Of a DNA stretch of 64,000 nucleotides, positions 10,537 through 63,888 are shown one piece after another. Source of the stretch: Chondrosia reniformis (taxonomy: Eukaryota; Porifera; Demospongiae; Chondrillida; Chondrillidae); assembly GCA_947172415.1 (NCBI GenBank), contig OX359194.1:1674001-1738000 (forward strand), read 5' to 3'. The notes under the pieces were generated by a model. The model did no database searches. It saw nothing but the letters and a program-made list of their open reading frames with translations, and was not told where the DNA came from. The translations under genes and the position numbers were made by a program. Position 1 is the first letter of the stretch, and each line of letters opens with the position of its first letter.

Positions 10537-13500
10537 ATGGCCGAACCCACGAAGAAAGAGATTGCCGCTTTGTTCAAGAAACTTCGCAGTCAGGGACCTA
10601 ATAAGGTAGTAGATAGTACTATGGAATGGTCAGTTTGGTGTACCTGTAGACGCCTTGGGTCCTGCGCGACAGACTGACTATTCCAATTGTCTCCCATTGT
10701 CTTTGCTGGGCTTGTTTCCACTGTGTAATGTCGTGTTGGTAAATATCTCGAGTGGTGTGTAGGATACGAATGGGAGGCCATAAGGAATAGTAGATAAATG
10801 TGAAATTGTTGAACTATTCGTGTTTTTAGTGTGTGAATTATACTGGCTTCCTGTAGCCGTTTTAGAATGTAATTCCTATAGATCAATTCCGACATCTTTC
10901 CAATCCAATTATATCATGTATCCTTGTACTTGTATGCGATTCGACCTAAAGTTTGTTGTCCGTGGATATGACCTGTTAAATGTGCATTCAGTGTACCATA
11001 CAATCCACATAATGTCAAGTTACCACTTCAAGCATGGCTTATATTTATTATTTGTAGTATGATTTCTTGGAATTTATTTAGTACACGACTAAGACTAATC
11101 ACTTTATCTTTTATAATTACTTTGTTGCTGTTTCGTATAGTGCTACGTATATACCACATACATACATATGTGCGTACGTATGAAAAATCTAATATACTAA
11201 TCTAATAAAATATGTATAAGAATAAATCACAAGTATAGCCACTAGTTATTAGTAATACAATATAGTATATGTTATATTTACACATGTATGTGCCCGCTCT
11301 GTAGATGTGTTTTGACTGTGGGGCCCTCAACCCGACCTGGTCTTCAGTGACTTACGGTGTCTTCCTGTGCATTGCCTGCTCTGCCACTCATCGCTCATTG
11401 GGAGTGCATCTCTCCTTTGTCAGGTGAGTTCAATTTCTACTGGCGGTAGCTGCATAGTGTATTTGTAATTAGTACATGTGTATATATTTATAGTATGTAT
11501 GTATGTATGAAACACATTTTCCTACATGCTATGCCTATTCTGTAAAAAGCCTATAGGGGAACTAAACCTGAAGAGAGCTCTAACTCTAGTTCTAACCCGT
11601 ATACATATCCAGCATTGAATGCAGTAATAGGGGATACTTGTTGTGTTCATAATGAATTTATTGCTGAAGAAGACCTACCGGTCAAAGCATCCTTATACTG
11701 ATTAATAATAAGTGTTGCTGATGCTCAAATTGTAACCAATTCGTATACATGTCCGTACATGTACCTGGTCTATGTTTATAGGTCAACACAACTGGACACT
11801 TGGTCGTGGGTTCAACTTCGTAACATGCAAGTGGGAGGAAATGCTGCAGCTGTAAGTTAACAAACTCCGTCCCTGTCACATAATTTGTCTATAGGTTCTG
11901 ATTGGCTAAGTGTTTTAATGTATATCGGGAATTGAATGTGAGGTTTATCCAAAAATGGGTATAAGTGATTAAGGAGTCCAAGAGGAAACTGGAGGTGTAT
12001 ACTGTATGCGCTTTAATTTTCGTGGGGTTAATATTTCACAAATTCTCCATTTTCACGAATTTTCGCATTTTTAAATTCAGTTGCTGGACTCAAGGGTGTT
12101 GAAATATTTGTAGATGGCTGGTGATCCGTGAAAACCGTGACCATTAAACCCCGCAATTAAAGCGCAATACAATATATGGAATTACTGAGGTTTCAAATCA
12201 ATATGCTTGAAAAGATTTCTAATGTGGGAAAAATTAGCAATCTCACATTCTTTAGACACATCCTTACAATTCCCAATACTTATGATTACTTATTATATTA
12301 TTATTATATATCTTTTTCTAATGTACGTACATATTGTGATGGACTTACTTATTGGGAATGCTATGTTACATTTTACTGTGTGTAGAATGCCTTTTTCCGG
12401 CAACATGGCTGCACCAGCAATAAGGATGCTGCCTCCAAGTATAACAGTCGAGCAGCCTCTTTGTACAGGGATAAATTGAAGAATCTGGCAGAGCAGACAC
12501 AGAGAAAATATGGTACCCAAGTACGTATGTGTGAGTGTGTGTATGAGTTAGTCAGTGTGTGCATGTGTGTGCATGAAAAATCTAAGATACCATTTTCCTA
12601 CATGCTATATGCCTATTCTGTAAAAGAGCCTATAGGGGAACTAAACCTGAAGAGAGCTTTTGGATGAGGATATAGGAGTCTTTTCTTCCTTCTTTTCCCT
12701 TCTTTCATCTTCTTCTCCACTGGGTCAGACAGCCGTTTCTGGGAATTCCACCCTTCATCAGTGATCCTGGGAGTCTTTGTCTTTACTTTATCTTGATCTT
12801 CTGTGAATCCTTGGCATGCATGGCCTGTAGAATTGAAGATGGCTTTATTGTGTATTTTCCGATAGTTACACCTTGATGCGATGGCCTCATCGCCTTTAGA
12901 TCAAGAAGAAGACTTTTTTCAATCTTTGACAGAGACAAGTATGTTTACATTCTAATTATGGCTTACCTCTGCCTGTTGTACTTATTTAGTACGTACATAC
13001 AGTTGTACACATATTTGCTGTGTGAATGTCTTCTATTTAATGGTCATATACGTTTGTACGTACGAATGTATGTACATTCTTAGCTAAATTATAAGGTTAT
13101 GGAATATTAAATGACTAATATTCACAACAGATCTGTGTATTGGAATACGTAGCTTCAATGACTTCACTAATTACGTATTACTGTAGCCCTACCAAACCCT
13201 GAGGCTTCCTTATCTGATAGGAAACTTGAAGCCAAGGACACTGCATTGGTAAGTGCGTAGGTACAACCTGTGCATACACAGGGCTGCATAGAGGGGGATG
13301 GGTGGCATTTGCCTCCCTTAGGATTGATTCCCCCTGCTAGACTTTTGGTAAGTCTTAATATGTTATATACCATTGCCCCCCACCCCCCCCCCCCCCCCCC
13401 AAAAAATGTTTTTTTGGAAATTTTATGATTTTGCCTTCCTGCCTGTAGTGTACAATGTTTACTTCCTGCCCGTAGTGTACAATGTTTACTTCCTGCCCGT

Positions 13501-16500
13501 AGTGTACAATGTGTACTTCCTGCCCGTAGTGTACAATGTTTACTTCCTGCCCGTAGTGTACAATGTTTACTTCCTGCCCGTAGTGTACAATGTTTACTTC
13601 CTGCCCGTAGTGTACAATGTGTACTTCCTGCCCGTAGTGTACAATGTTTACTTCCTGCCCGTAGTGTACAATGTTTACTTCCTGCCTGTAGTGTACAATG
13701 TTTACTTCCTGCCCGTAGTGTACAATGTGTACTTCCTGCCCGTAGTGTACAATGTTTACTTCCTGCCCGTAGTGTACAATGTGTACTTCCTGCCCGTAGT
13801 GTACAATGTGTACTTCCTGCCCGTAGTGTACATATATACTTCCTGCCCGTAGTGTACAATGTGTACTTCCTGCCCGTAGTGTACAATGTGTACTTCCTGC
13901 CCGTAGTGTACAATGTGTACTTCCTGCCCGTAGTGTACAATGTGTACTTCCTGCCCGTAGTGTACAATGTGTACTTCCTGCCCGTAGTGTACAATGTGTA
14001 CTTCCTGCCCGTAGTGTACAATGTGTACTTCCTGCCTGTAGACCTCTCTGAAGGAGACATCCGTTGATAAGAGTAAGGAGACCGATGGTACCAGACAGCC
14101 CAGTATTGAGGGGTTGCTCTCCCAGCCCATACCCAAGAGTGACAAAGGTGAGAACAGTGTATGCAGCACTCTACTGTGTTGAGCAACACTCAAATGAGGT
14201 TTCAGAGAAGAGTTTTTAAATTGTGACTTCATGATAATTATTGTGAATGTGTGTACGTAGCTTTCAACATAAGATTGCACAATGTACGTATATACGTATG
14301 TATGCAGACGTATTAATGTGATTAGGTGATTTGATCTAATAATCTTTCCGTCTTATCCTCTGTAGAAACTAAATCCTCACTCATAGGAAAGAGAAGGCAA
14401 CCACAGAATAAGCCAGGACTAGGAGGAAGAAAAGGACTCGGTGGCCAGAAGGTCTGTAGCTGTACACCGCATTTACATACCTGCTTAGTTGTGGTGTAAT
14501 TAAAACTACTTATTACAACTACATTTTGTCAGCATGCACATGCATATGCGTATACTCTGTTAAGTACTACGTAGCTTCATATTGTATGTACGTGGTTTTG
14601 TCACAAGATGGGTATAAAAACAGCTGTAAGCTATAATTACGTACCACTATATAATAATTAATTCTGCCATATTCCAATTACCTTGATAATACGTAGGTTA
14701 ATCCGTATCAGTTTGTCAAACGAAATAATGACCATTTATCCATGATTGTAGGTGACGGCAAATTTTGATGAGTTAGAAAAGGAAGCCGTAAAACATGATA
14801 AAGAAAGAGCTAAGTTAGCAGAACAAATGGAAAAGTCAAATCTTCAAGATTCAGAAGGAGTGTTAGTTATTTCTTATTGGAAAATCGAAGAAACACTGTA
14901 TTTGTTAAGATATAATACAAACTTGGGAAGTGTGCTGATAAGTGCAGTGTGTATTTAAGCCAATTACTTGGGAACTCAATAAAGTGCACATTTTACAAAT
15001 TCATAGGTTCAATATGCAATAGCAATAAGTGTTGATAGCAACAATACAATTATTTCCACTTTCATAAGTGCATCGATTAACTGTCAGGTGCTCTGGGTTG
15101 CCACCTCAAACTAAATACATTTGTGCAGACATACATCCATAGTAGAGCAGTGGTATACTATATAGAGTAATAACAATAGTTCAATATTTGTTGGCTATTA
15201 AAATTTGGCAATTTGACCTTCTTCAAAAGTATTGTATGTACATAAGAGAGGGAAATTCCCCCCCTCCTAAAGAAGCCCTGTCACCACTGTTCTATAATGT
15301 CTGTATATACATATATACGTAGATCTACTCTGGGATATGGAGATTTGAGTATTTCACAGCAGAAGGCAGCGAAAGAGCTGAAGAACATGGACTCCCATAA
15401 GCAGAAACAGGCAGAGAGACTGGGAATGGGATTTGGAAGAGCATCGTGAGCTACAATCACATTTAAATTGTTTTGCTTACCTTTCCTCTAAGTTCAGTAA
15501 CTACACACAGAATTATGTTTATATATGTACATTAACATTGACCAGGATGGCCACCTCTGACTTGTTACATTGAGGGTATGTTTACTGGAACCTAATTATT
15601 CCTCTGAATTGTAATATTTACACCTTTTCTCTTTATGGTTATCTAATAATCATAGAAGTGTGTAAGACGTGGCCCTCCCACAGATTAGCGTATGTACAAG
15701 GTACTCCACCTTTGTACATGTACACTGGTTTGTACGTATGTATGGCCCAGTGGAGAAGAAGAGAAGTAGAAGGAGAAAACTCTTGTATCCTCATCCAAAG
15801 CTCTCACTAGGTTTAGTTCTATGGACGATGTAGCATGTATGAAGAGTGGCGTGTCAGATTATTAATGCATTGTAGTGGGGTCACGTGTGTTCTCTTCATT
15901 GCAGTGCCACCAAGAGTCACTCAGCCTCAGCCAGTATGAATGTGATTGACCAGGAGGGACCCATTACCAAACAGAAGCCATCTCTCTCTGCTTACTCTAA
16001 TGATAATAGCTTTTTTGACAAGTATGATGTTAAGCTTTTAGTAACTATTAGAAAACATTCCTTGTCATTATTTAAGTTGTTAGAGTTAGCTTCATATTGA
16101 GTTGTCATGGGGAAAGGGCTACATTTAATTGCACTCATGGTTTTGGTGATAATTAGGCCATATTGTTGTCTGCTTGAGCTAATTTTGAGCTAATTCTGGT
16201 TGTACCATTTTTGGCAACTGAAAATTAACTTCAAAACCATCTGTGCACTCTGTACTGTAGCTGAATGGTTGTGTGTTACAATTGGATGTGCCATTGGAAT
16301 GTTACCTACAGAGCCTTTTGTATATAAACTTATGTATGCTATATTGCTATATTGCTATATTGTACTGTACAGTTTTAGTGGCTCAAGTGGAAGAAGTTAT
16401 TACAAGAGTGACAGAAGTACTGTTGATCCCCCAGCCTACATGGATGACTCCTTTGGGTCCTTCCAATCTGGTAAGGACTACTCTATAGCTTTGAGCAAAC

Positions 16501-24300: not shown

Positions 24301-27300
24301 TTTTGTACACATAATTGAATGAATTAATTGCTTAGTTATATGTACATACGTATATCCTATACGTATCACAATCTAAGAACATTCAGTCATGTATACTTAA
24401 TAGTCGTTGTTAGGGTTACAAACATACTGGTATGAAAATAGCCTGCCATATCTTTATAGCCTCTTCTTTCTCTTCCTTCACTTCAGGACTATCCTAGGAT
24501 TTAAAAACACAATCCTTTGAAAGTGTTATATTACTCCACGAGGTTAACAGTATACATAAAGGACTTAGAGAAGAAGAGAAGACAAAGACTCCCAGGATCA
24601 CTGATGAAGGATGGAATTCCCAGAGAAATAGCTGTCTGGCCCAGTGAAAAGGAAGAAATACAAAACTGTAGGTATATTTGCCCAAAGCTCTATATAAGTT
24701 TTCCCTCCATAACAGATTTGGGAAACAGTTCTCTACAGTCTCATATTGATGTAAACCATGTCTTTAGGATATTCATGATAGTGTGTAACTGTGAATAAGC
24801 TACGTATAGCTAACTGTTGTGATTATCGGCTCTTCATCTGGAGTGGCAGGTTGATCCTCAAACAGAGTCATCTCGGCTTCGTCAGATTGGCCGTCCTCTT
24901 CTGTCAAAATGTTCTCTTTAGAGTTTGAACTAACATGAGGTGCACTAGTTGCAGTATTATCTTGTACAGTCCGCGAGAGAGACACATCTTCGGGTCCTAC
25001 AGAACGTAATAACAAAGAAAAAACTAAAGCATTATATTAAAGGTATAACCCTTTCACGTATCTCTACAGATATACGTATATAACACTTTCTCAACAATCT
25101 CAACAATTGTATTATACAGTTTACTCGTATAGCATTCACAACACATCACACGGAGGAGAAAGGAATCTGCAACTTGACCTATACATATGAACGTATATTG
25201 CAGTAGACTGATAACAACAACTCACGTTCCACTAGTAGCAGAAATGTGGCAAACATTATAGTAATCATTATAAAGGCACTTGAAAGGAAAGACCATCCCC
25301 TGGAGCAACAGAATGGAAAACACCATTTACTAGGCACACCATAATCGCCTATGATATATTGAGCCTACATTAGGAAGGGTTCATCTTTCAATCTCTTTTG
25401 GACATTTAAAGACACAGTTTCCTGATTGAATCTTCATTTGACCCTGGGGGACTTCTTCAGTGACAAAAGTTGAAACATTTGACAAAAAGTTTCAACACCA
25501 TAAACTCTGTCTATAGTTGCTCAAAAGAGGTCATAAGATGAACCCTTTCAAAGATAACGGAAGTCTAGTCTTACCACAAGGTAGGTGTGGCCCAAATAGC
25601 TGGAATGAGGTAGCCGAGAAGATTGCCCACTGCAGTGTTGCTGTTCCAGATACCCATTATGGTCCCTCGGCTGAAGAGAGGAGTAGGAAGGGGCATGGTT
25701 GACACAGGGAGGCACTTCCTTTACATCATCATGGACTAGGTTTCATCCAGACATTTTTGTAAGGGGGGGGGATTTGACTTTTAAATTTTTGCAGGAGTGA
25801 TATCATACCTTGATAAAATAGTTAAGTGGCAACCTAAATCAAGGGGGGGCAACTCTTCAGCAGGGGGGAATGCCCTACCTTGCCCCCCCCCCTCCCCGAA
25901 TGAAACCCTGATCCAACATAACAGATTTAGGATATCAAAGCTAGTGAAAGATTACATATCATTACATCAGATTACATCAGATTACATCAGAGAAACAGCT
26001 AAGCTTGACTAAAATATAAAACAGCAGAAAAGGGCTACAACAATATTGCGTGCATAGAAGTATACATTTCAATTGTAATTTGATCATGCAGAAAGTACAA
26101 AATGCTCAGAACTTAACCTTGTCTTTCCAAACCAATTCACCAAAAATATAATCAAAGCCGGCCAACCAGTTGACTGAAACAATCCACCAATGATCTAAGA
26201 TATAGTAGGCATGCAATAACACAGTCACCAAGGTAACAACGTGATCCCTCAATATTATGAGATGGTATATTAGCAAAGATTTTCAGTTGAAAGAACTATT
26301 ATAGAGTTGAAAAGAGGGAGTAAACTATACACAAAGCCTTTGCAAGGCTATGCTGAAATGTGAAGAATCACTTGAAATTATTGGAAATATAAATGTATGT
26401 ACGTAGGTTGGGAGACCACAGCCCCATTAAATGGCGACCAGCGATCACCTCCTCGTGGTCAAAGATGGTAAAAAGTGTTATCACTGCTAGCACATTCACA
26501 AAGCTCACCTGTACAATGATGAAATAGGCAAAACTGTGGATATTGAAGAAGAACCCAAAACCAAGCATCAAGGAGGACACAACTGAACCTACATACGTAC
26601 AGAGACATAAACAAATGGTCCTCATAAGCTGAATATAACACATGGTCCCATCAAATATAACACATGGTCTCATCAAGCATTAACAAATACGTAGCAATAT
26701 ACAAAGACTATAGATCTATTATATCTTCCAACATTTTGAGTATTAGAACTAGATTCACCAAACTCATGTACTCAGTGAAGACTTTAATGTTAAAGTCAAT
26801 TATAATTAAACATTGCTACCTTACCTGTCATTCCAGCTAGCAAGAAGTATCTGGGAGGAGTTCTCTCAGCAATTTGTCCACTATAAACATGTAAACATGA
26901 AGTGCAGAGGAGGGTAAACAGAAAAGATTATGTAAATATCTTGTTATATTACATATACTGTACATACACAATATTATAAGATGAAAAATAGGAAATCTTT
27001 GAGATGGCTATCTTTAGTCTTTTGAGTGTCTAAAGTTGCAGTATGGTTTTTGCAAAGTCAGACAGTTCAACCCTGAGGTATTCTTCATCTAGCAGGACCA
27101 AAACATCCAACTTCTCAAATATTTTCATCTTCAGATGTTCAAAGACTACAGAAGGACCATCTCAAAGATCCTCCTAAGTCCTACATACGTACATACAAAT
27201 ATTCCCAGTTCTCGAAACCAAATTAAAAAGTGGTACCTTACCATTCAAGAAATGAGGTACTACGTACTATCAAGTACCAACATGTGTATTTACCTGATAA

Positions 27301-46919: not shown

Positions 46920-49900
46920 TCAATAAAGAAAATCAATATGTTCTGCATACTTCTTCATTATGGCCTCTCTCTTAAGCTTTAACGTGGGAGCTATACGTAG
47001 ATGGATAAGAAATATGATTTTAAAAGATTTTCTTAAGTGTATCTCAATGAACATGGGGCCTGTCTGAACAGAATATTTTACAAAACAATCAATGTAGTGT
47101 ATGTTTATACAGTATTAACCACAAGGGACCAAAAATAACTCATAAACATCACCACATACACATGTAATAGGCAGGCGGCTCCACCAGGTGACATTTGTAA
47201 CTATTTTTGGCATACACATTCTTATATCATCCAGAAACATGTCTAGGAGAGTGGGATCTTATCTAATAAACCCCTGTTACAAAGTGTGTTCTATTAAGCA
47301 TTGCTCAGCATTTTGACTAAATACAAAGCTAGCCTCCCAATTATAATAGTAGTACAAACTGCAAAAGTGGAGACAGAGCGGTGCCTTCAGGTGATAATAC
47401 AATCAAAAACTAACTTATCTCTCCTCCTGCCACTGTAAAATCACTCTCAAGAATGGTCCATCTTAAGATCTATGTATTAGGAAAAGTATCCATATCTTGA
47501 AACGTACCTCAGTATATTATACGTATCACCTAATTTTATCACTTGTAAGGAAGTGAATGCATAAAAGGGTCTTTAAACAGTCAAACAGATTAACTAAAAG
47601 GTGCACACACAACAATAGCATTTTATATTTTCAATATGATACATGCATGGCCTAATGGAGCAGAATAATAAAGAGAAGACTCTCATCCAAAACTCTCACT
47701 AGGTTTAGTTCCCTACAGGTCTTTTATCGTAGAATCGATGTATGTACTCATGTGATGAGTAGACTTATATAGAAATGAAAGCAGCTAATCGGTTATATCA
47801 ACACTAACACTGATAATTAGGAAACACCCAGAAATATTAATTTGTTTTTCTAGTAGCAAAGATTAATGTATATTGAACCTTCGTACTTTGTGAGATTTTA
47901 TTGATGCTTTTGAATTCACATGATCTACTCCTTTTTTGATCATCTTTAGGACATTTGTGTCACCACTCTCATCAATAACATCATCAATTGTAGTGGCTGA
48001 ACTTCCAACTTTACGACAAGCCATTATTGCTTCAAATGTTAACTGATTACTCGACCGTCCACTGTCTTCATCAGCCTCCAACTAAATCAAGAACAAATTC
48101 ATGTTTACACAAGTTCTGTGATATCACATTAATGTTCAGTATTTAATTAATTAATTTTCATATAGTCAAGAAGAAGGAATAGTGTAACAGTTCCTTGGCA
48201 TTGAATAATAGGTCCCATTGCATCTCTACCAGTGAGCCATGTGTTACAGTGCTATTACAGTACCTCTCCTCTCTTAATACATCCAATCATCCAATTAAAT
48301 AATCGATTATATCATTGAGGCCATTACTAGCTAGGTAGCAGTAATAAACTTAACCCATTTCCTGTGGGAGGAGCCAAGTGAAACTATGGGTACTTAGCTG
48401 TGTTAAACCTGTGCTTGTCAAAAATAATTTTTGATACAAGGTATACATATACACAACTGATTAACATAGATGTCAGTACTTTCAGTTGTATATATTTCAT
48501 ATCAGATAAACTGTTGGATGGTAGCAGAAATATTACAAATATTCCCACGAGTTAGCCATTACACTTGTCTCAAAAATCCAAAAACATATTTGCATATGTA
48601 CCTTTAGAGTTAGAAGACAAACTAGGTAAGGTCTTTGATCTCCAATGACAACTGCATTGCTAATAACAGGTAGTTCAGCCTTGATCATTTGTTCAATTGG
48701 AACTGGAGCTACCTTAGTACCATCTGACAATACTATTAGCTCTACAAGAAAGAAATTGTTACAGCTGTTGAGGTCTACTTCAGGATACAGTGTATGTTCA
48801 CAATGTTCTTTCTCATATGGCAGATTTTGCATCAGTTGCAGGAAAAGAATTTTATACCATTAGATCAAAAGTAATATTTAAGTAAGTAAAGGAGAGAATT
48901 CAGATATATATATTGTATACAATATACTGCCTTCTAATTCGAATTGGGTAAAGTGGTTTTGAAACTGGCATTGGGAAGTCTGAGAAATATCACTATTAAT
49001 GTACTAGTGGTACACTTACCTTTAATTCTACCAGTGATAAATAGGTGCCCATCTTTGTCAAGGCGACCAAAGTCACCTGACCTAAGGTATCCATCTGGTG
49101 TGAACACCTGACTGGTTTTGTCTGGTTTATGTAGATATCCCATAAATATGTTCCTCCCAGATATAACTACCTGCAGACACAGCAAAATGGAAACATTCAT
49201 AAGTCACGCCCGTTGACACAGACACCCACACAAATATACTCCCCATACACTTACACAGATACACACCACTCATGCATACATTTAAGATTCTATACTACAT
49301 GTAAGAATGTACATGGTGATTCTATGAATATCATTACACAGTTAATGTGGGAAGTCCTATGCATAAATATCTTGTTACTGCTGTCACAGGCAATTTACAG
49401 TCTGCTATTATACAAACTGTGAATGTTAAGTTGAGTGGCACTGTACGGCATCCATTCAAAGCTGACACAAATACAGTAGTATATCAGTAGTATATGTATA
49501 TATTTACAAGTACTCTATAGGTATTTTATTACATTAGAGTGCTTTCTAAGGGATGTCTGTGGTATATAGATATGTACACAGGCACCTCCAGCTGTACACA
49601 GACACCTCCAGCTGTACACAGGCACCTCCAGCTGTACACAGACACCTCCAGCTGTACACAGGCACCTCCAGCTGTACACAGGCACCTCCAGCTGTACAGA
49701 GGCACATCCAGCTGTACACAGGCACATCCAGCTGTACAGAGGCACCTCCAGCTGTACAGAGGCACCTCCAGCTGTACACAACCATAAACATTAAAATTTG
49801 TTCCTTATGTAAACTCATTAGACAAGCTTGTGACAGTAGGCAGCCATAGTACTGCCTGCAAGGCTGGTGGGAGGCTATTCATACACATAGCTTCTGATTA

Positions 49901-52900
49901 GCACTTTTATAAACAAGGCTATGGGTAGATAGCCATATAAAGATCACTTTATGATGCCAGCTCAGATGTATACTAATACCTTCCAGAAACCATTAGCTAC
50001 AACATAGCTGATTCAGCAAAGCCTATCAAAGGTGTTATAATGCCAGTGGATCATAATAGAATCCATATGAACTGAAACTGAGGAATTTAATAGGTAGAGT
50101 ATAAGGGAAGGGTTTAACTTAAGCTAGGGGGTTATTATAAGTTTTTGAAAACTTGAACAATACCTTTCCTACTGGTAATAAATATAGTATCAAAACGATT
50201 GATTTGTCTGATAGACAAATTAAATAATTTAATTAAAACTGTACCCAGATAATAATTATTAAACAAAGGATGAGATGGAAAACAGAGCCATATCCTTTTA
50301 TAGTAATCTGATCATGAACATACTGGCTAAATCTGATATGATTTGATGTCAAATTGACACAGACCACACATCATATATCATACAATGTCAAACAAACATG
50401 GATTCACGGAAGATCAATGATAGAGAAAAAGACAAAGACTCCCAGAATCACTGATGAAGGGTGGAATTCCCAGAAACAACTGTCTGACCCAGTGGAGAAG
50501 AAGATGAAAAGAAAAACTCCAGGACCTGTACCTTCATCCAAAGCTCCCTCCAGGTTTAGTTCCCCTATAGGCTTTTTACAGAATAGGCACAGCATGTAGG
50601 AAAATGTTGTATTAAATATTTCATGGCTTAAGGAAAAAAAAGAAAAACAATAGTATGAATCTGTTCCTGATCCAAAGCTCTAGATAGGTTTTCCTTTAGT
50701 AATAGGTCTAGGAACACGGTCTGTTCTATGTATGTATTTTAGTTTCATAATAAGATAAACCACACATTTAGGAAAATTGTGTTTTAGACTATTTTTTGAG
50801 GTGTTAACACATATAATATATTCAAAGGGCGGCCATGTTATATAGTGCCATTCCTACTAAAGTATACAAAGCATTTTCAGACAAGGTGTGTACAACTATA
50901 CTACCAGAGTGTACTGTACCTCTCCAATTCCGTCATTATCAGGATTCAAGATCTTTATATCTGTCCCTTCCATAGCAAACCCATTTGACCCAAATCGCAG
51001 TGTTCGTTCAGTTGTGACAGTAGTTGGTCCAGTTGATTCACTCATACCGTACAGCTTGTGTAGGCAGATGTTGAGACTCAGAAAGTAGCTCATCGTTTCA
51101 TCTGCCATTGGTGCAGCACCAGTGAAGTGATGGTGACATCGATCTAACCCCAAGTGTTTGGAAATCTAAATACATTAAAATGACCATTGAGAAACTGCAT
51201 TGCATGGCATACATGATCAGGTATTGTGAATATTACACAAAAACTAAATTGCAAAGCAAGCATTTGAACTGTAGAGTCATTGTCTAAATGCTTTAATGGT
51301 GTGCTCATAGAGATAATACGTATGTACAGGGCAGAGTTTGTTTTAAAAGGTATAATGAGCTAAGTTCTTAGAGCCAAGGTCTTACAAGATCACAGGACAT
51401 TTTAGTGGATGGAACAAGTAAATAGCGTGAACGGTGACAATTACGTAAAGGGAGTGCATACATTAGATTATAGGGGGTCTGGCAAGAGATATTAAACCCT
51501 GATACAATCTGTGATAATTTCAATCAAATCAAATACTTGGAATATAATTGGAATATATAACCCTAAAATCAATCACATTACTTGCTACTGGGACCTTTAT
51601 TGCATAACTTTCTCACACACAAAACCCTATTTATAAGATTTTTAAATGTAATAATGGAATCAATAGAAATCTTTATGGAGTATCTCTTCTGCTTTGAAGA
51701 AGGTCCTATCAAATTACAGAAGACTCAAAAAAACATTTAAACTATTGCTGCTACTGGTAGAGAAAGCCTAAAATGTTACTGTATGGTACTGATGTAGTTT
51801 CAAATGTATTAATGATAATTGAATTGGTAGATATGATGATTGCACTTCTTAGGGAGGAAGGCTCAGAATTCAAAGTCGGGATGCCTCCCCCCCTAAAAGA
51901 AGCCTTACTGGTGCATGTTCAGCTACAGACATGGCAATCAGACCATATTACTGTATGGTTAATATGATTAAATGAGAAAATGATGAAAAAATCAGCACAT
52001 ATGCATAGAATAGATTTCTACCACTGAAGTATAGTTGGCACATGGTCAAACTCAGGGGCAGATCTAGAAATTTGTAAGGAGGGTACTAAGTTATATAGAA
52101 GTGTGACAGAGAAAGGGTATGAGATGGTTTGGCTAGTATTATACCAACAAAATAGAATAAGGAACTGCATTGAACTTGTCTTTTAGTTGGAGCTTCAGTT
52201 TGCTGAAGAGGTAGAGGAGGTCAAAGTGCCCACAGAAGAAGATCAAACAAAGAACTGCATCCTTAGACGCTCTATAAGTCAAAAGATGCTCCAACTAAAA
52301 TATATCTTTAGGATTGTACATCTTTTGACTTTTTGAGTGTCTAAAAATGCAGTTGGTAAATCTTCTGGTCAGACGTGTTTTTAGACACTCAAAGAGTTGA
52401 AAGATGTACCATCTTAAAGATAAGTTCGATGCAGTTAGAAATAATCCTTATTCTATTAACTAAAAGACAGTTTGATGTAGGGCTAATACAAAGTCAACAT
52501 ACGTACTCAGAAGGTACGTGTTATTCAGCACCCAAAGGAACCCTTAAATCTGCCACTGACACTTCTATCAGTGTTCCAGTACAGTACAACGGTGCAGTTG
52601 TTCTGTTTGGTAGAGCAAACCAACTATCAACAGGCAGCGTGTATGGAGTGGATATATGTATCAAATAAGTAGCAATCTCATTGGTCTGTCTAAGAGGTCA
52701 CCACTTGCAATAGGCTCCTATAGGACTAATGGTATTTAAAAACTGAATCTGTAGACACTGACCTTTTTGAACACCAGCAGTCTAGCAAGGGACCAACCAA
52801 CTGGGGTACTTCCCCTGGAGTAAATAAATAATATTCAATTATAGTGTACGTACTCCTTCCCTGGATAATCTATATACCACACACAGACATACATATGAAT

Positions 52901-55900
52901 AATCTAATACACAATTTTCTTACATGCTACATCTTTAGATTAACGACCTATAGGGAACTAAACCTAGTCAGAGTTTTGGATGAGGATACAAGAGGTTTCT
53001 CCTTCTCCTTGTCTTCTTCTTCACTGGGCCAGACAGCTGTTTCCGAGTACTGTACTAGTTAAAGTTAATGTCTACTTCAAGATTGAAATTTAGAGATTAA
53101 ATAGTATTCACAAACACAATTCCTCAAGTATTTTGAACTTACAAAAAATACATTCAGTACATGAATAATTGAAGTGATAATCAAACCACAAGTAATAATC
53201 AATGAAACATCATAAAGAGGGAAAAACACGAAAGAAGCAATTGCTGGGAATCGAACCCAGGACAGCTGGTTATGACCACCAGTTGCTCTGCCACTGAGCT
53301 ACAGCAATGCCTCTCCCATGCACATATATGTGTACGTACGTATGTACATATTGGCCACACATAAGAATATACCCATTCTGTTTGCTAAGGTTTCCTCTAA
53401 GTCCAATGTCTTTGGCCCATTTTGAGATCTTCTTCTTAAATCCACTTAGGGAACTACCGTAGTTTTGAATACCAATTGCTAACTTTTCCCATACCCGTGG
53501 AACACCGAGGAAGATGGTAGGTCTTACCTCCCTGACAGTTTGGATTAATGATCCTATGAATAAAGATGTATTTATGGAACAGATGATTGTATTATACCAA
53601 AGATAATAATTTATTTTGAATTTAAATAGGAAAATCACCTTAAATATGTACATTTGTTGTGAATATAAATATGACATATAAAAGGTGATTTTCCAGGACA
53701 TTTGAAGTTGAAAGATGGCTATATCTCCATGTTTTTACAGAATATTACCAACTACCTGTTTGCAGACTATACTTTCAGACAGCTGAAAAGATTGTTGAAT
53801 AACCAACAGAAAACAATTCTGTTTCCATTAGGAACACAAAAGGGCCGGGTGTAACTTTCTTTTATTTAGTTATATACAGTGGTTCAATGGTCACCTTCAA
53901 GCTCTTTTAACTGAGTACCTGGTATACATACGTACGTAGAAGTGACCTTCTTATTAATGGGCTCTATGGGTATTAGTAGACTATAATCATCGGTAATTAA
54001 AATGGCTGACGGCTAGCAGCATAAATACAAGTTCCATTGACAACCAGTTTAATTGACAACCATTGCCAGGGTTTCATCCATTCATCCAGAAATTTTTGTA
54101 TGGGGGGAGAGGCAAATTTCAACAATACCTTGATAAAATAGTTATATGGCAACCTAAATCCAAGGGGGGCAACTCTTCAGCAAGGGGGGAACACCCCACC
54201 TTGCCCCCCCCCCCCTAAATGAAACCTGATTGTATCATAATAAATAGTACTGCAAATAATGTGAAACATTTAATGGCTGTAACTAAAAATAAATCACACA
54301 CTTCACTTGATGTTTGACACATGAGATACTATATCAGCGATCTGTCTCTTTACATGTATGCAAGTACACACACTGACAGATGAACCATTAAAAAAAGACT
54401 CCCCAGGAACAAAATGTGCAATTCCCAAGCTAGAAACAAACTGCATCTCTAGTCTCTCAAAAGGCTAAATATGACCTATCTCAAGATAATTGGAAAGGGT
54501 CATCTTTTGACTTTGGGAACGTCTAGAGACGCAGTTTTGTTTTGATTCTTATTTCTGCCAAACGTTTCGACCCTGGGGGTCTTCTTCAGTGACTGATGTT
54601 GGTCTTAGAGGTGTCTCCATTTATATCAAGATAAGTTAGAAGAAATACCTATCATTTATTCATCCAAAATATGTAAGTCTTTTATTACTGTTTAAAACAG
54701 AATGCCTAGTCGATAGACATGAGTATTTACCTTTCAGAGCATCAGGCTGGGCAAACCAGATAGTTCCTCCACAGATCATACTACCATAAATGTCCAGTAC
54801 TTGAGCTGCTATGTGAGCCAAAGGTAGGTAACTGACGACCTCTTCTTGTGGAGCACGATTGTCCAAAGAGCGCACGATCTGCTGTGCTTCCCAAGTAATC
54901 TACGTACAGTACGTAAGGACACCACAAACATACCTTTTTAGGTGTGCATGTCAAGGATTTACAAAAAATTATGACAAAGAAAAAGATTTCCAGGGTCACT
55001 GATGAAGGGTGGAATTCCCAGAAACAGCTGCCTGGTCCAGTGGAGCAGAAGAAGAAAGAGAAGACTCCTGTATCTACAACCAAAACTCTCTCCAGGTCTA
55101 GTTCCCTATAGTCTTTTTAATTTATTACAGAGTAGGCAAAGCATGTAGGAAAATGGTGTTTTAGAATATTCACGTCCACTAAGATCAGAATGCAACATTA
55201 TTGAGGCCAGTTCTACAAATTCACTGCTATATAGGCTACAACATGTCTTAATTGCTATATAGGCTACTACATGTCTCCACTGCTATATAGGCTACTACGT
55301 ACATGTCTCCACTGCTATATAGGCTACTACATGTCTTCACTGCTATATAGGCTACAACATGTCTTCACTGCTATATAGGCTACAACATGTCTTCACTGCT
55401 ATATAGGCTACAACATGTCTTCACTGCTATATAGGCTACTACATGTCTTCACTGCTATATAGGCTACAACATGTCTTCACTGCTATATAGGCTACAACAT
55501 GACTTCACTGCTAAGGTACTACATTTAAGGGCAAGTGAAAGATTCTTACGTACATTGTCATGACTCAGCATCACTCCCTTTGGGGATCCAGTTGTGCCAG
55601 ACTACATGAATGAAGGATGAGAGGCTAAGTATGGACACCTATGTACATGTATAAATATAAATGTATGTACGGTGCTCACAGTATATATCAAGGAAGAACA
55701 GCACTCTGGCCTTATTGCTCTCAGCCGCTGCTCCAATTCACGTCCATCTTCCTCATATCCGAGGGCTAAGGCATGCGACCACTAAGTTTATGAGTTAATT
55801 TAAAAGATATTGAGAATATATATATAATAATATTGAATGTACATAAGTCTGCTAACTATACAGATAAACAGATGAGGGATTCAAATTTAATATTTATACA

Positions 55901-58900: not shown

Positions 58901-61179
58901 TTTTTGCTTCTTTATATAATATAATATATTATATAAAGAAAAACAAAGAATATAATAGACAACTGGAACAACCAATCAATTTACACCTAGGTATTCAGTC
59001 CATTGGGGAATACCTACAGTTACAAATTGTAAATTCATAGAATTAGCACCTCATCCAGCTGGAATCAGGTCAATAATGAGACATTATCCTCCCACAAACT
59101 GTTAAATGGACATTAGCAGAAGGAACATGCTACCTACTTTACTGAGATAAGGGTAACCCAGCTGCTAATAACTGTATATAACAAAAACATGATTCTACAA
59201 CAATAACTTTATTGAAACAATTAATATTTTCATAAATGTACACGTCACATTAAAAAGATGCGATCAATGCACATGCCAAAACTGAGAGATACGTATCCCA
59301 ATAGTGCAATCATTTTTCATAAATGTACACGTCACATTAAAAAGATGCGATCAACGCACATGCCAAAACTGAGAGATACGTATCCCAAAAGTGCAATCAT
59401 TTTAGTAAGACAAGAAAAGTCCATCTTAATACTAAAGGTACGTATGAAGCAAAAATGAATTATAACAATATGTGTACAGCTTCAAAAGGTATATAAAATA
59501 AAAAACAACATTCTTTATTATAGCTTCAAATGCTAACTTTTAAATTAAACACTTCAAGAAACTTTCACCAGGACACTTTCTTCTGATTAGTAGTTTACAC
59601 AATAACAAAATTCTTAAGACTAAGCGGAAAGCTATATTCTTCTATTAATAGTGTACCAATCCTGAACATGAAAAATCTAAGGTACCATTTTCCTACAATG
59701 CCTATTCTGTAAAAAGAGCCTATAGGGGAACTAAACCTGAAGAGAGCTTTAGATGAAGATACAGGAGTCTTTTCTTCCTTCTTTTCCCTTCTTTCATCTT
59801 CTTCTCCACTGGGTCAGACAGCCGTTTCTGGGAATTCCACCCTTCATCAGTGATCCTGGGAGTCTTTGTCTTTTTCTTTATCTTGATCTTCTGTGAATCC
59901 AAACATGCATTTTATATGCCTGTCATGTACATGGGTAAAGTTCATCAATTATCCGAACATTTGCTAAAACAGCATGGCCAGGTATGAGGCTATGGGCAAA
60001 CAATTATAGTACAATCTGTTTAGCAAACTGTCAAAACCAACACTGGCACCCAGTAAGTAGAACAAGGCACATTTTATCAATTAAGCAAGCAGATTACAGT
60101 AATGGTAGTATATATTGTGAAAATCTTTGATTGATACGAAGCATTATACAAAAAACATTGTCTGTTATGAGTAAAATGGTGAAAATGTACTCTGAGTCTC
60201 AATCTCTTTCGATACCTAAGAAAGTTCACATGATCTATATATGATTACAAGTAGACAACACATTCAATTTACTCAAAATGCTAAATGTGTGTAGAATATT
60301 TCCTTCAACTTAAGAGCTTAACTAGAACACTAATACACACATAATAGATAGCATATTTCTTGGTTGAATGTTTCAAAACATAGGGGTCTTTACCATTGTC
60401 CCTCAGGGTCAAAACACTTGACTAAAAGAATATACCAAAACTGCGTCTTTAGATGCTCAAAAAGTCGAAAGATGTTCCATCTAAAAGATATGTTTGACAG
60501 TTAGAAGGAATCCTTATTTTATTAAAGGACTATGTTCTAGATACCAAAATGGGTTTCAACCATCAAGCTACAGCTAAAAATATAATGGCAAAACTATAAA
60601 ACTAGCTACTACAGTAGCTGAATTAGATAATATGTCATTGGAATGACCATTGTGCAGCAGTTAAAACTGAAACTAGGTACATGCATATGTACATTATGGA
60701 ATGATATTGTTTGCATAATGAATAATATTGAAAGAACCACATTCAATATTTTAAATGATCCGCCAAGCCTATTTAGTCTAATCACACATTATAACCTACT
60801 AATACAAAAGTTTATATAAACTATGGTTAAACAAAATTGAATGAAAATACAGAAATGAAACACACGATGCAAATATGTTGTATATGACTATAGGATTATA
60901 CACGTACCTTCCTAAATGACCTCAAAATCTGAAGTCCCGGAATTTAACATAATTGATAATTTTAAAATCTAATTCTCAATGATAAAATACGTAATTAATC
61001 ACTTAGACAGGCATCTAAGTTGGGAAATGGGAAATACTTATACAACTGAAGTATATTTAGACCACATATACAAATTATACAGCCAACATCTAACCTAAAG
61101 CGTCTTCAAAACAGTCACTGACTCCGGCAATACTCCCATCATTGCTATCATCTAAAATGCTATCTTCGTCTTCTGCCAT
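46920..61179 (-). CDS. ACSBG: Bubblegum-type long-chain acyl-CoA synthetase, about 695 aa
   Basis: Sixteen exons: 61095-61179, 58249-58553, 57723-57811, 56449-56569, 56071-56148, 55680-55781, 55554-55601, 54731-54899, 53373-53553, 52763-52814, 50920-51165, 49020-49170, 48602-48741, 47879-48081, 47415-47461, 46920-46990; 696 codons with stop. An acidic N-terminus (MAEDEDSILDDSNDGS) is followed by GVCILGFNSPEWFISNIAAM, the AMP-binding loop SGTTGSPKGVMLSHDN (about 261-276), YLPLAHIAAQVLDIYGSMIC, FLGVPRVWEKLA, FTGAAP, LYGMSESTGP, YLRSGDFGRLDKDGHLFITG, VPIEQMIKAELPVISNAVVI and the typical end TPTLKLKREAIMKKYAEHID. Length fits ACSBG1/2. The family activates long and very long fatty acids with ATP and CoA. 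Introns hold most of the interspersed and tandem repeats in this half of the window. Confidence 0.96.
47655..47760 (+). repeat. Family A copy starting at the cleavage point
   Basis: Starts TGGCCTAATGGAGCAG directly after non-homologous sequence, at the same position as the 15741 copy. It then runs through CTCTCACTAGGTTTAGTTCC and ends near the TAGACTTA-like segment. Confidence 0.65.
49575..49782. repeat. 20-bp tandem array, about 10-11 units
   Basis: Unit GGCACCTCCAGCTGTACACA with A/G variants (GACACC, CAGAGG) and two CACATCC units. Several overlapping frames stay open on both strands and encode Cys/Trp- or Ser/Thr-rich repeats; none has independent support. It is in the ACSBG intron between exons 11 and 12. 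Confidence 0.95.
50400..50625 (+). mobile_element. Family A element, near full length
   Basis: Runs from GGATTCACGGAAGATCAATG to TAGGCACAGCATGTAGGAAA. It carries an intact hammerhead-like core (50439-50498), then a purine-rich tract and TTTAGTTCCCCTATAGGC. It is in the ACSBG intron between exons 11 and 12. Confidence 0.75.
50439..50498 (+). ncRNA. Candidate type I hammerhead ribozyme (family A)
   Basis: CCCAGAATCA, CTGATGA, GGG/CCC helix II, GAAAC, AACT loop, cleavage triplet GTC (50482-50484), TGACCCAGTGGAG. Helix III (AC/GT) is conserved although the loop differs from other copies (AACT against GGCT). The GAATCA/TGACCC helix I is weaker than in other copies. Confidence 0.5.
52900..53055 (-). 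repeat. Family A copy, truncated in the ribozyme
   Basis: Complement-orientation copy with TACATGCTACATC, AACTAAACCTAGTCAGAG, CTTCACTGGGCCAGACAGC and TGTTTCCGAG. The CTGATGA half of the ribozyme is missing. It is in the ACSBG intron between exons 9 and 10. Confidence 0.65.
53155..53315 (-). mobile_element. tRNA-derived SINE, copy 2
   Basis: Complement of copy 1: A box TAGCTCAGTGGCAGAGC, T arm CTGGGTTCGATTCCCAG with a consensus B box, and the same tail through GTTTGATTATCAC. Compared with copy 1 it lacks the short GCAGTTGTA stretch in the acceptor region. It is in the ACSBG gene, directly downstream of exon 9. Confidence 0.85.
54066..54232. repeat. Repeat F copy 2
   Basis: Matches 25738-25915: CATCCAGAAATTTTTGTA, ACCTTGATAAAATAGTTA, GGGGCAACTCTTCAGCA, a C run, then GAAACCTGAT. 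It is in an ACSBG intron. Confidence 0.7.
54485..54640. repeat. Fold-back family H
   Basis: GGAAAGGGTCATCTTTTGAC at the left end, then ACGTCTAGAGACGCAGTTTT and AACGTTTCGACCCTGGGGGT followed by CTTCTTCAGTGA. The complement reads CTGAAGAAGACC ... GGGTCGAAACG, a hammerhead-like core. The closing arm is degraded. Confidence 0.6.
54965..55180 (+). repeat. Family A copy with mutated ribozyme
   Basis: The ribozyme region at about 54988-55048 keeps GGGTCA, CTGATGA, helix II, GAAAC and TGGTCC. The cleavage triplet is GCC instead of GTC. Helix I GGGTCA/TGGTCC pairs fully using G-U pairs and so differs in a compensating way from the GGATCA/TGACCC copies. It is in an ACSBG intron. Confidence 0.7.
55205..55512. 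repeat. 28-bp tandem array, about 11 units
   Basis: Unit GCTATATAGGCTACAACATG then TCTTCACT, with TACTAC/TACAAC and CTCC/CTTC variants. It lies in an ACSBG intron about 40 bp inside the exon 7 donor and does not include the donor. Confidence 0.95.
57624..57682. repeat. 42-bp near-perfect palindrome between direct repeats
   Basis: Arms CCATAGATCTTATATACTTA (57634-57653) and TAAGTGTATAAGATCTATGG (57656-57675) are separated by two bases, with one non-Watson-Crick position. The 12-mer TATGGAGAAACC occurs on both sides (57624-57635 and 57671-57682). It is in ACSBG intron 2. Confidence 0.85.
58908..58940. repeat. AT-rich palindrome
   Basis: TTCTTTATATAATAT followed by its near-complement ATATTATATAAAGAA around a short centre. 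It is in ACSBG intron 1. Confidence 0.7.
59233..59405. repeat. About 85-bp tandem duplication
   Basis: Two copies beginning CATAAATGTACACGTCACAT and ending GTGCAATCATTTT, differing at about two positions. They lie in ACSBG intron 1. Confidence 0.95.
59670..59900 (-). mobile_element. Family A element, near full length
   Basis: Almost identical to 12575-12810 from GAAAAATCTAAGG to TCTTGATCTTCTGTGAATCC, which suggests recent copying. It carries a complete candidate ribozyme on the minus strand. It is in ACSBG intron 1. Confidence 0.75.
59804..59862 (-). ncRNA. Candidate type I hammerhead ribozyme (family A)
   Basis: Same minus-strand series as at 12714-12774: CAGGATCA, CTGATGA, GGG/CCC, GAAAC, GGCT loop, GTC, TGACCCAGTGGAG. 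The sequences are identical through the core, so it is a second intact copy rather than independent evidence of folding. Confidence 0.6.
60380..60530. repeat. Fold-back family H, degenerate
   Basis: TTGTCCCTCAGGGTCAAAAC, then CTGCGTCTTTAGATGCTC and the tail GACAGTTAGAAGGAATCCTT. It is in ACSBG intron 1. Confidence 0.5.
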
Positions 61180-61736: not shown

Positions 61737-63888
61737 ATGTGGCTGGAGGCTAGAAAGCAGGAGAAGAAGATTAGAGGGATGATGGTGAATTTTCAAAGAA
61801 GGGCAGAGAGAAGGCGGGATTTTTATGAGAAGACGGTACGTAAGCGTTTACGTGGCGCATCCACTTTGTGTCATTAATCAGTGCAACATTAATGGTGCGG
61901 TTGTTTTAAGGTATATAATCTTTATTCTGTTAAACACTCGAATATTTACACTACGCACGAAAGAGCTAATCACCAGGTGACGGATGGGCGGTCGCCTTGA
62001 ATATACGTAGTGTCTAATTGTAAGCAAAGTATTAGATGGACGCACTCGTAAATACGTGTATGGGTGACCGCATTGGTTATTCAAATATACATGGACTGTA
62101 GAAACTGATCTGTAAAATGAATGGATTGCATAAAAGTACATGGAGTTCCTAGAAACGGTTGTCTGACCCAGTGGAGAGGAAGATGAAAGAAGGGAAAAGA
62201 AGGAAGAAAAGACTCCTGTATCTTCATCCAAAGCTCTCTTCAGGTTTAGTTCTCCTATAGGCTCTTTTACAGAATAGGCATATAGCATGTAGGAAAATGG
62301 TATCTTAGATTTTTCATGGTACCAGCTACAACAGTGTGACTAGAATGGTCTGATGTACGTAGCTAGCCCAGACCCCTATGGCCATTTTACATAATAGGCA
62401 GGGAGGGGGGTCTGGCTGCACTAATTGTAAGTAATGTACCCTCCCTTACATACGTACGTATGCTCAACAAGAAGGCATAATTCACACCTACACAATCAAC
62501 ATTTGTGAGCATGGGCAGAATAATGCATTTCCCATCCCATGACTGTGTGTTACAAGCTTATTTATCACATTTCCTTTGTTATCCTCACTGCTTCCTCTTT
62601 CAAATTGTTCTAAAGTGTTTGAAGTAGATATATTGTTTGACTGAGATTTTGCAATATCACATATACCACATTGTTGATTTGTTCCTTATTGTGGTAAAGT
62701 CTCATCACTACGTATCTATCCCTTCTTAGAGAGGAGACCCTATTAAACTGTTGAGAGTGTATGGCAATTCCATGAAGATTCACACTGATTCTGCTGTCAG
62801 TGTTGCTGGAGATTCACCCTCTACGATGTCAGTGAGTGTGTGTTACTATGGCGATGTCAGTGAGTGTGTTACTATGGCGATGTCAGTGTGTGTGTTACTA
62901 TGGTGATGGCCTCAAGCGAGTAGCACTTACTACTTTAGAAAACACATGTCGCAATTGAATATATCTTAGAACTGACTTAGTTAAGCAATCATTAGTACGT
63001 ATGTATGTTCATGAGTATATGCCAAGGGCGCACAAGAGATCAAGAAGAAGACAAGATTAAGAAAAAGACAAAAATTCCCAGGGTCACTGATGAAGAGTGA
63101 AATTCAGGCCCAGTGGAGAAGAAGAGTGGGGGAAATTCTTGTATCCTCTCCCCAAACTCTCACTAGGTTTAGTTCCCTAAACTTCACTCTAAAGTTGACG
63201 TAATGTGCAAGGAAATAGTGTACGTATTAGTTGTACTGTAGTCAGCAGTTACAGTTTTCTCCATGACATTCAGAGGAGCCTGACAAATGGTCTAGTATGA
63301 CACACTAGGAAGTGGTGAACATATTAGATATTAGATTATTCTTGCTGATTTGTTTACCAGTTTGAACGTGACATGCTCCTCTATGTTATAATTGCTCATC
63401 AGTGACTATCAGTGACTATCGCTTGTATGAACTTCTCCATTCCTGTGTGTAAGCGTGTGTATGAGACAATCTAAATACATGTGTAGAAGGCAACTCCTTG
63501 TCTAGGTCAGCTGTGAAAACGACGTTGTTTAAGCTGATGAATCCCTTAATTTTTAGTGGGATTTCCTTGTATAGATTGCTCTATTTGTAGATTAGATTCA
63601 GCTTAATTTTATCTCCAGTCAATTCACAGATAACATCTTTCCTATTTCTAAGGTTATGTGTGTATGTATACTTTATATCACTTCAGGTTAGTTGTATGTT
63701 CATGTTAGGTTTGCTGCTGATTATATATGCAAATTGAGGCCAATGGGTTGGCCAGCTATGAATGTCATTATGAGTGATCTCCCCCACAGGATGCCCTGGT
63801 CAGGTGATCCGGATGTTATGATATCAAGATTTGATGTTAGAGCTCATCTTGACACCTTGCCTTCAGTCAGAAAGGAGGATGTTTCAGA
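61737..63888 (+). CDS. CLASRP: CLK4-associating SR-related protein, N-terminal part
   Basis: Three exons before the window ends: 61737-61835, 62730-62827, 63790-63888, all in phase. The translated start MWLEARKQEKKIRGMMVNFQ then RRAERRRDFYEK matches the SWAP-type N-terminus of CLASRP/SFRS16. Exon 2 gives GDPIKLLRVYGNSMKIH. Exon 3 gives MMPWSGDPDVMISRFDVRAH. Vertebrate CLASRP binds CLK4 and takes part in splice-site selection; the C-terminal SR-rich part would lie beyond the right edge. The start has a good context (CACCATGT). Both internal donors are followed by tandem repeats. Confidence 0.93.
62130..62330 (+). repeat. Family A copy, 5'-truncated in the ribozyme
   Basis: Begins at TGGAGTTCCTAGAAACGG, so CTGATGA is missing while GAAAC, GTC and TGACCCAGTGGAG remain. 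It then continues to the family end AAAATGGTATCTTAGATTTT. It is in CLASRP intron 1. Confidence 0.75.
62825..62904 (+). repeat. 26-28 bp triplication of a 5' splice site
   Basis: Three units at 62825-62852, 62853-62878 and 62879-62904, each starting GATGTCAGTGTG or GATGTCAGTGAGTGTG and ending TTACTATGG. The first contains the CLASRP exon 2 donor (AT|GTCAGTG at 62827/62828). The other two repeat it 28 and 54 bp downstream. Confidence 0.95.
63045..63235 (+). repeat. Family A copy with deleted ribozyme core
   Basis: CCCAGGGTCACTGATGAAGA is followed by GAAATTCAGGCCCAGTGGAG. The segment carrying GAAAC and GTC is deleted. It then continues CTCTCACTAGGTTTAGTTCC. It is in CLASRP intron 2. Confidence 0.7.

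What the first reader, a model, noticed from the sequence alone, without database searches (positions are those of the whole stretch)
12714..12774. Abundant short repeat carries a candidate hammerhead ribozyme
Family A copies at 12575, 24560, 50400, 54965 and 59670 all have CTGATGA, a GGG/CCC helix II, GAAA(C), and a GTC-type triplet in hammerhead order. The flanks pair as helix I, and they covary: GGATCA/TGACCC, GGGTCA/TGGTCC and GGATCA/TGGCCC. Short non-autonomous retroelements with type I hammerheads (retrozymes) and hammerhead-bearing Penelope elements are known in animals, but I do not recognise this family. Weak points are the A.A apposition at the base of helix II and the two-pair helix III.
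Basis: partly seen in the sequence, partly recalled or inferred. Interest (0 to 1): 0.85.

Follow-up and report, generated by a model that had tools for sequence, protein, structure and literature searches.

The report
Self-cutting RNA in a retrotransposon
An abundant short repeat in this animal genome is the end piece of a Penelope-type jumping gene; it carries a small self-cutting RNA, and many genomic copies begin exactly where that RNA is predicted to cut itself, which suggests that the cut happens in living cells and feeds new insertions.

Summary
The motif is real. Better evidence: (1) in 80 copies chosen by their 3' part (71 flank groups), 27 groups start at a TATA-positioned cluster and 7 at exactly the first nucleotide after the predicted cut; no other position within 70 nt has more than 2; (2) genome-wide junction patterns give 33 hits there against 2-4 at four control positions; 13 of 20 inspected lack the upstream part, 7 are rearrangements; (3) in nine old copies 5.8% of core cells differ, against 26.6% outside; (4) canonical hammerheads with compensatory helices exist elsewhere in the genome. 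Most likely the ribozyme cuts in vivo and the 3' product is reverse-transcribed. No biochemistry was possible.

The parts
12572..12817 (-). Family A copy (pLTR 3' end of the Penelope-like element), 5' end at the transcription-start cluster
   Evidence: nhmmer match 4-250 of the family profile, E 4e-85
12722..12767 (-). Hammerhead ribozyme: helix I arms 12762-12767 and 12722-12727, CTGATGA 12755-12761, helix II GGG/CCC, GAAAC, GTC 12728-12730; predicted cleavage between 12728 and 12727
   Evidence: sequence; core conservation; insertion 5' ends
59667..59901 (-). Family A copy; ribozyme 59811-59850 (core to 3' helix I arm), 3' product would start at 59816
50397..50625 (+). Family A copy; ribozyme 50451-50490, 3' product would start at 50485
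54949..55173 (+). Older family A copy; ribozyme 54999-55038 with GCC in place of GTC
24563..24705 (+). Older family A copy with a decayed ribozyme at 24601-24629
62141..62318 (+). Family A copy whose 5' end lies inside the ribozyme (loop II)
15743..15866 (+). Older family A copy that by eye begins at the first nucleotide after the predicted cleavage site (TGGCCCAGTGGAG); nhmmer and BLAST carry the match 9 nt further through weak similarity
47648..47737 (+). Older family A copy that by eye begins at the same site (TGGCCTAATGGAG); nhmmer carries the match 4 nt further
63020..63178 (+). Older family A copy with a deletion through the 3' half of the ribozyme
52895..53051 (-). Family A copy, 5'-truncated near GAAAC

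Best explanation
Family A is the 3' end of the pLTR of a Penelope-like retroelement with a GIY-YIG endonuclease domain ahead of its reverse transcriptase. A TATA box in the pLTR drives transcripts that start about 27-36 nt downstream (inferred from insertion 5' ends). The first ~90 nt of this RNA and the arm that follows fold into a minimal type I hammerhead that cuts between GUC and UGACCC. The element's reverse transcriptase starts at the fixed 3' end (...TTTTTCATG) and copies to whatever 5' end the RNA has: the start site if uncut (insertions of about 240 bp) or the cleavage site if cut (about 155 bp). Shown by computation: membership of the element, position of the motif, fixed 3' end, 5' ends at the start cluster and at the cleavage nucleotide, conservation of the core. 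Inferred: that the cut is made by the RNA itself, that it happens before reverse transcription, and that the PLE enzyme mobilises the short copies.
For: Element: (973-aa ORF; GIY-YIG at aa 102-135, E 2.1e-4, 22.0 bits against a cut-off of 22.6; 655-bp and 1380-bp identical direct repeats around the ORF of L071 and L072; family A at the end of each repeat). 5' ends: (80 loci, 71 flank groups: 27 at the start cluster, 7 or 8 by gap setting at the cleavage nucleotide, 28-30 spread over the other 140 positions within 70 nt, at most 2 on one position; nominal Poisson p 3e-9 or less). Genome-wide junction patterns: 33 at the cleavage nucleotide, 4 one nt later, 2 one nt earlier, 2 and 2 at two other TG positions; 13 of 20 fetched lack the start-to-cut part upstream. 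Core conservation: 13/224 mismatches in the 27-nt core, 325/1221 outside, in 9 old copies not chosen by the core; of 183 windows of 27 nt the core ranks second and the window one base before it first. Canonical type I hammerheads with the same ACAGCTGTC stem III region in the same genome (RF00163 up to 41.6 bits), with both-sided changes against family A in 5 of 6 helix I pairs and 3 of 4 helix II pairs (9 sequences, gap placed by hand).
Against: Rfam finds no hammerhead in family A. The commonest copy has an A.C mismatch in helix I, an A.A at the base of helix II and only two helix III pairs, and its minimum-energy fold is not the hammerhead (z +1.07); the older version forms helices I and II, but with CUG of the core paired to stem III bases, and folds no better than shuffles (z 0.25). 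Seven of 20 inspected junction hits are internal rearrangements, and one of the 7 cleavage-site groups (L100) also has element start sequence upstream. 11 of the 33 junction hits follow ACA, and in L171, an insertion into an older family A copy, the TG at the junction seems shared with the target, so target homology may help place some ends. More insertions start at the start cluster than at the cut (27 against 7 groups). Families A and B share the motif but not their flanks, so the cross-family pair changes may not be descent with compensation.
Confidence: 0.8

Rival explanations
1. The 5' ends at TGACCC come from where reverse transcription stops or where the cDNA joins the target by short homology (TG of CATG-like targets), not from RNA cleavage; the motif is inert.
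For: 11 of the 33 junction hits follow ACA, so a TG overlap with a CATG-like target is possible there, and L171 shows such an overlap; scattered ends exist elsewhere; one PLE hammerhead was dispensable for insertion in vitro and no reads end at its site (PMC11167929, passages).
Against: Two other TG positions at cs-4 and cs+8 give 2 hits each against 33 (the control hits were not inspected). By inference, a stop at the ribozyme fold should lie at the outer end of helix I, about 6 nt 3' of the observed position. The other 22 upstream trinucleotides vary. Older copies with TGGCCC instead of TGACCC seem to begin at the same place (window 15743 and 47648 by eye; 43 pattern hits, no matched control, including one 7-hit array and probable duplicates).
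Confidence: 0.13
2. A second transcription start site happens to lie at TGACCC.
For: Insertion 5' ends at the upstream cluster do look like a TATA-directed start.
Against: No TATA-like sequence lies 25-35 nt upstream of the site (sequence printed), and the peak is one nucleotide wide whereas the start cluster spans about 10 nt (nhmmer, which extends by a chance base, splits the peak over two positions).
Confidence: 0.04
3. The block is conserved because it encodes protein (an open frame ...[23 protein letters not shown]... crosses it).
For: A 57-codon open frame can be read in a window copy (translated by hand).
Against: No Pfam match up to E 10; conservation drops at the edges of CTGATGA...GAAAC.
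Confidence: 0.03
4. It is a retrozyme: a tandem-repeat element that spreads as a ribozyme-made circular RNA.
For: Size near 240 bp and a type I hammerhead, as in coral retrozymes of 220-240 bp (PMC7229834, results section part 1).
Against: The copies seen are mostly single with defined ends, not tandem dimers; their defined 5' ends are the start cluster or the cleavage site and their 3' end is fixed, which a circular template would not give; the same sequence is the end of a coding PLE.
Confidence: 0.06

Closest known systems
Hammerheads in pLTRs of Penelope-like elements (Cervera and de la Pena 2014; Lunse et al. 2017; neither held, known here through passages of reviews PMC7761336 and PMC6155905)
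   Same: Minimal type I hammerhead with a rudimentary helix III in the pLTR of a PLE, repeated at both ends of the element; PMC6155905 says all PLE sequences available in 2017 have such motifs
   Different: PMC7761336 calls in vivo activity and role 'still a mystery'; here genomic insertions start at the predicted cut. The helix II base is A.A, and the GIY-YIG domain is N-terminal
Poseidon element of Anolis carolinensis (PAc; PMC11167929, passages)
   Same: PLE with pLTR hammerhead; internal start of reverse transcription that matches the genomic tail
   Different: PAc has a C-terminal endonuclease; its ORF begins at stem II of its ribozyme, which needs the protein to cut, is not needed for insertion in vitro, and no reads begin or end at its site
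N-terminal-endonuclease PLEs, Chlamys/Naiad group (Craig et al. 2021; title seen in a reference list; content recalled)
   Same: GIY-YIG before RT, pLTRs, insertion in microsatellite-like DNA; the RT sequence resembles recalled Naiad proteins
   Different: The abstract, as I recall it, says this clade lacks canonical hammerhead motifs; this element has a hammerhead, though a non-canonical one
Metazoan retrozymes (PMC7229834, results part 1 and passages)
   Same: Short non-autonomous repeat with a type I hammerhead; the paper names PLEs as likely mobilisers
   Different: Copies here are mostly single, with ends that fit a linear template, and are continuous with a PLE
HDV-like and other ribozymes at 5' ends of R2/RTE-type elements (recalled; named in a passage of PMC7761336)
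   Same: Self-cleavage sets the 5' end of the element's RNA
   Different: Different ribozyme; here the cut removes a leader that begins at a pLTR promoter and is not obligatory

Membership tests
Type I hammerhead ribozyme | CUGAUGA ... GAAA core with cleavage triplet, in order, open at helix I | tested here: met
   80 of 103 held copies that span the region have CTGATGA..GAAA..GTC; many of the 103 had been fetched by the core pattern, so the share is biased upwards
Type I hammerhead ribozyme | Helices I and II paired, with G10.1-C11.1 at the base of helix II (recalled) | tested here: inconclusive
   GGATCA/TGACCC with 5 of 6 pairs in 64 of the 81 copies (of 103) that fit the pattern (the printed 65 of 82 include the consensus row); 6 of 6 pairs in 6 copies; helix II has 3 pairs above an A.A
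Type I hammerhead ribozyme | Match to Rfam RF00163 or relatives | tested here: not met
   No match up to E 10 for the window copy, none for L010 and L011 up to E 1
Type I hammerhead ribozyme | Compensatory changes | tested here: inconclusive
   None convincing inside family A; clear between family A and families B in the same genome, common descent not shown
Type I hammerhead ribozyme | Self-cleavage at the predicted site | not testable with these tools
   Indirect: 5'-end peak at the site
Penelope-like element | PLE-type RT | tested here: inconclusive
   Motifs FDFSTLYTAIPH, GIPMGTDCAP, YRYIDDLL (recalled as PLE-like); no Pfam RT match up to E 10; 3 weak PDB matches, none an RT
Penelope-like element | GIY-YIG endonuclease | tested here: met
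   PF01541, E 2.1e-4, 22.0 bits, just under the 22.6 cut-off
Penelope-like element | pLTR or partial tandem organisation, 5' truncation | tested here: met
   Direct repeats in L071 and L072, none in L073; truncation
N-terminal EN PLE (Chlamys/Naiad) | GIY-YIG N-terminal to RT in one ORF | tested here: met
   aa 102-135 of 973, RT motifs in the C-terminal half, stop soon after them
N-terminal EN PLE (Chlamys/Naiad) | Place in the RT tree | not tested
   No reference PLE sequences at hand
Retrozyme | Tandem repeats | tested here: not met
   Young copies are mostly single with fixed ends
Retrozyme | Circular RNA intermediate | not testable with these tools
   No RNA data

The most novel reading that the evidence does not exclude
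In an N-terminal-endonuclease Penelope-like element, a hammerhead that Rfam cannot see cuts the transcript in vivo, and the cut 3' product is a normal template for insertion, so that the ribozyme spawns a second, shorter class of non-autonomous copies whose 5' ends are a genomic record of ribozyme activity.
Probability: 0.7. Interest if true: 0.75.

Novelty: new variant of a known kind. Interest (0 to 1): 0.63.

Why it matters
Hammerheads have been reported in Penelope-like elements since 2014, but a review calls their in vivo activity and role 'still a mystery' (PMC7761336, passage), and the biochemical study that I saw found the cut unnecessary for insertion and no reads at the site (PMC11167929, passages). 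Genomic 5' ends give a cheap assay: any genome with enough copies can be asked whether insertions start at the cut. If the result holds, these ribozymes act in cells and shape what is inserted, and N-terminal-endonuclease PLEs are not free of hammerheads.

Tried and rejected
Rfam at gathering and at E 10 for the motif: no hammerhead. DNA search of 61 bp in the whole genome: no candidates (the tool skips very common words); replaced by patterns. Protein reading of the conserved block: no Pfam match. PLE coding sequence in the window: no tblastn match at E 1e-3. Within-family covariation: not found. A local alignment with cheap gaps over-extended into flanks and was set aside (it gave 3 groups at the site, nominal p 2e-4); stricter settings were used. 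A first conservation count included copies fetched by the core pattern (13/359 in the core); it was redone without five of them (27/251 core, 336/1387 outside) and without one misaligned row, L099 (13/224 and 325/1221). PDB comparison of the ORF: no useful match. Papers not held: Craig 2021, Cervera 2014, Lunse 2017. In the listings of my paper searches (one search returned none) I saw no title or abstract start that reports insertion 5' ends at a PLE hammerhead site; only the passages and sections named here were read.

Full report
What was claimed. The motif is present on the minus strand at 12722-12767 and in the other copies, with departures in several of the five. The covariation is not there: the commonest helix I (GGATCA/TGACCC) has an A.C mismatch and helix II hardly varies. 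Rfam does not see a hammerhead, and CTGATGA alone is not clearly above chance.

What the repeat is. The window is part of a 117-Mb genome of 15 contigs: 14 large ones and one of 17.5 kb whose first 2.5 kb carry a cox1 readable with code 4. It looks to me like a demosponge, which is recall and comes from no call. The 27-nt core has 3317 hits with up to 3 mismatches, 0 for the reversed pattern. The copies shown (47 rows, some of them the same copy) nearly all end in TTTTTCATG or TTTTTCATA without poly(A); 14 rows carry ATAAGGCCCC, the end of a TATA-like box, upstream. In some of these a reverse transcriptase frame with Penelope-like motifs lies further upstream (motif naming recalled). A search with this RT scored 107 candidates and lists 109 matches, 9 of them in an open frame of 997 codons (one with a stop counted inside). 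L071 and L072 hold a 973-aa ORF between identical direct repeats of 655 and 1380 bp, each ending in family A; L073 has the ORF and one copy of the end. Pfam finds GIY-YIG at aa 102-135 (E 2.1e-4; 22.0 bits, cut-off 22.6) and no RT family. GIY-YIG is thus ahead of the RT motifs, the order of the Chlamys/Naiad PLEs (Craig et al. 2021; title seen, content recalled, paper not held). The window itself has no coding part of the element.

Where insertions begin. From 100 listed exact matches of a 25-nt pattern in the 3' part (2202 hits with up to 2 mismatches) I fetched 80; 7 were left out because already held through other searches, and 13 were not obtained. All lie on two contigs. BLAST against the L071 pLTR puts 30 of 80 ends in a cluster 83-92 nt before the predicted cut, 27-36 nt after the first base of TATATAAGG, and 10 exactly at the first nucleotide after the cut; four of these ten are one duplicated region. 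With duplicates merged by flank, 71 groups remain: 27 at the start cluster, 7 at the cut nucleotide (8 with another gap setting), 30 (28) spread over the other 140 positions within 70 nt, never more than 2 on one; nominal Poisson p 3.4e-9 (5e-11). One of the 7, L100, has element start sequence upstream and is a chimera. A version with cheap gaps over-extended and gave 3 groups. nhmmer over all held loci, with the targeted ones included, puts 9 flank groups each at the cut nucleotide and one base before it, the latter through chance extension. In the window, 2 of 14 matched copies (15743, 47648) begin at the cut by eye, although nhmmer carries them 9 and 4 nt further.

Genome-wide control. Patterns that demand an exact 24-mer after a position and a mismatch at each of the three bases before it give 33 hits at the cut, 4 one nt later, 2 one nt earlier, and 2 and 2 at the TG positions cs-4 and cs+8, chosen because targets are often CATG-like. 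Of the 33, 20 were fetched: 13 lack the start-to-cut part upstream, 7 are internal rearrangements or tandems. One of the 13, L171, sits in an older family A copy, where the TG of the junction seems shared with the target; 11 of the 33 follow ACA. So target homology may help, but it does not explain the difference between TG positions. The control hits were not inspected. The older TGGCCC version gives 43 hits, without a matched control, including one array with seven hits and probable duplicates on one contig.

Conservation and relatives. In 9 old copies that were not chosen by the core, 13 of 224 core cells differ from the young sequence, against 325 of 1221 outside (stem III loop and triplet not counted); of 183 windows of 27 nt the core ranks second and the window one base before it first (five core-selected copies and one misaligned row were dropped, and with the misaligned row the figures are 27/251 and 336/1387). 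Cells are not independent, so p values are nominal. A pattern for other hammerheads finds 735 hits against 25 for the control; the 100 listed include diverged family A copies, a third family, and canonical ones with GTCC/GGAC or GCCC/GGGC helix II and the same ACAGCTGTC. Of seven such canonical loci scanned with Rfam (L174-L177, L179-L181), five score above the RF00163 gathering score and two below. Placed beside family A by hand, 5 of 6 helix I and 3 of 4 helix II pairs change on both sides (9 sequences). Their flanks are unlike family A, so this supports the fold, not common descent.

Mechanism. Transcription from the pLTR, partial self-cleavage, and copying from a fixed 3' start account for the two 5'-end classes. 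A stop of the enzyme would be expected at the outer end of helix I (inference), and no TATA-like sequence precedes the cut. Roughly one in four or five insertions with a defined 5' end comes from cut RNA (7 or 8 groups against 27). What the element gains is open: a cut in the right-hand pLTR would separate the coding part from its 3' start, so the ribozyme may limit the element or feed the short copies.

Against the reading. The young fold is poor and the older one no better than shuffles, helix III has two pairs, the base of helix II is A.A. Such weak forms fit ribozymes that act as dimers or with protein help, as reported for other PLE hammerheads (review passages; PAc passages). Nothing here is biochemical.

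Noticed in passing
window 20431-20514 (+) and 5606-5681 (+): Two HDV-like ribozyme candidates: shared CCTCCTCGTGG core and P1; by eye P4 differs but stays paired (GTCACTTT/AAAGTGAT and CAACTC/GAGTTG) and P2 pairs. Below Rfam gathering: 29 of 50 bits for the first (E 0.0099 in a 181-nt scan), 26.6 of 44 for the second.
   Followed up: partly
L174 85-129, L175 85-129, L177 195-239, L180 285-329, L181 85-129: Canonical type I hammerheads of other repeat families in the same genome, some in inverted pairs a few hundred bases apart (e.g. L178); RF00163 34.6-41.6 bits.
   Followed up: partly
window 2546-2570 (-) and 23451-23475 (-): A third hammerhead-like family, CTGATGAAGACCTACGGGTTGAAAC, with similar copies, some inverted, elsewhere in the genome.
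   Followed up: no
window 40953-41136 (-): Decayed relative of the GCCC/GGGC hammerhead family.
   Followed up: no
L156, L157, L158, L162, L164, L169, L170, L100: Internal duplications or deletions of family A whose junction falls at the cleavage nucleotide, as if the enzyme had reached the end of a cut RNA and jumped to another template.
   Followed up: no
G000:C2:756960-757401: A short array in which seven hits show the TGGCCC cleavage-site junction.
   Followed up: no
window 39562-39634 (+) and 53236-53305 (-): Two near-identical tRNA matches (56.5 and 38.1 bits), the second partly decayed; possibly a tRNA-derived repeat.
   Followed up: no
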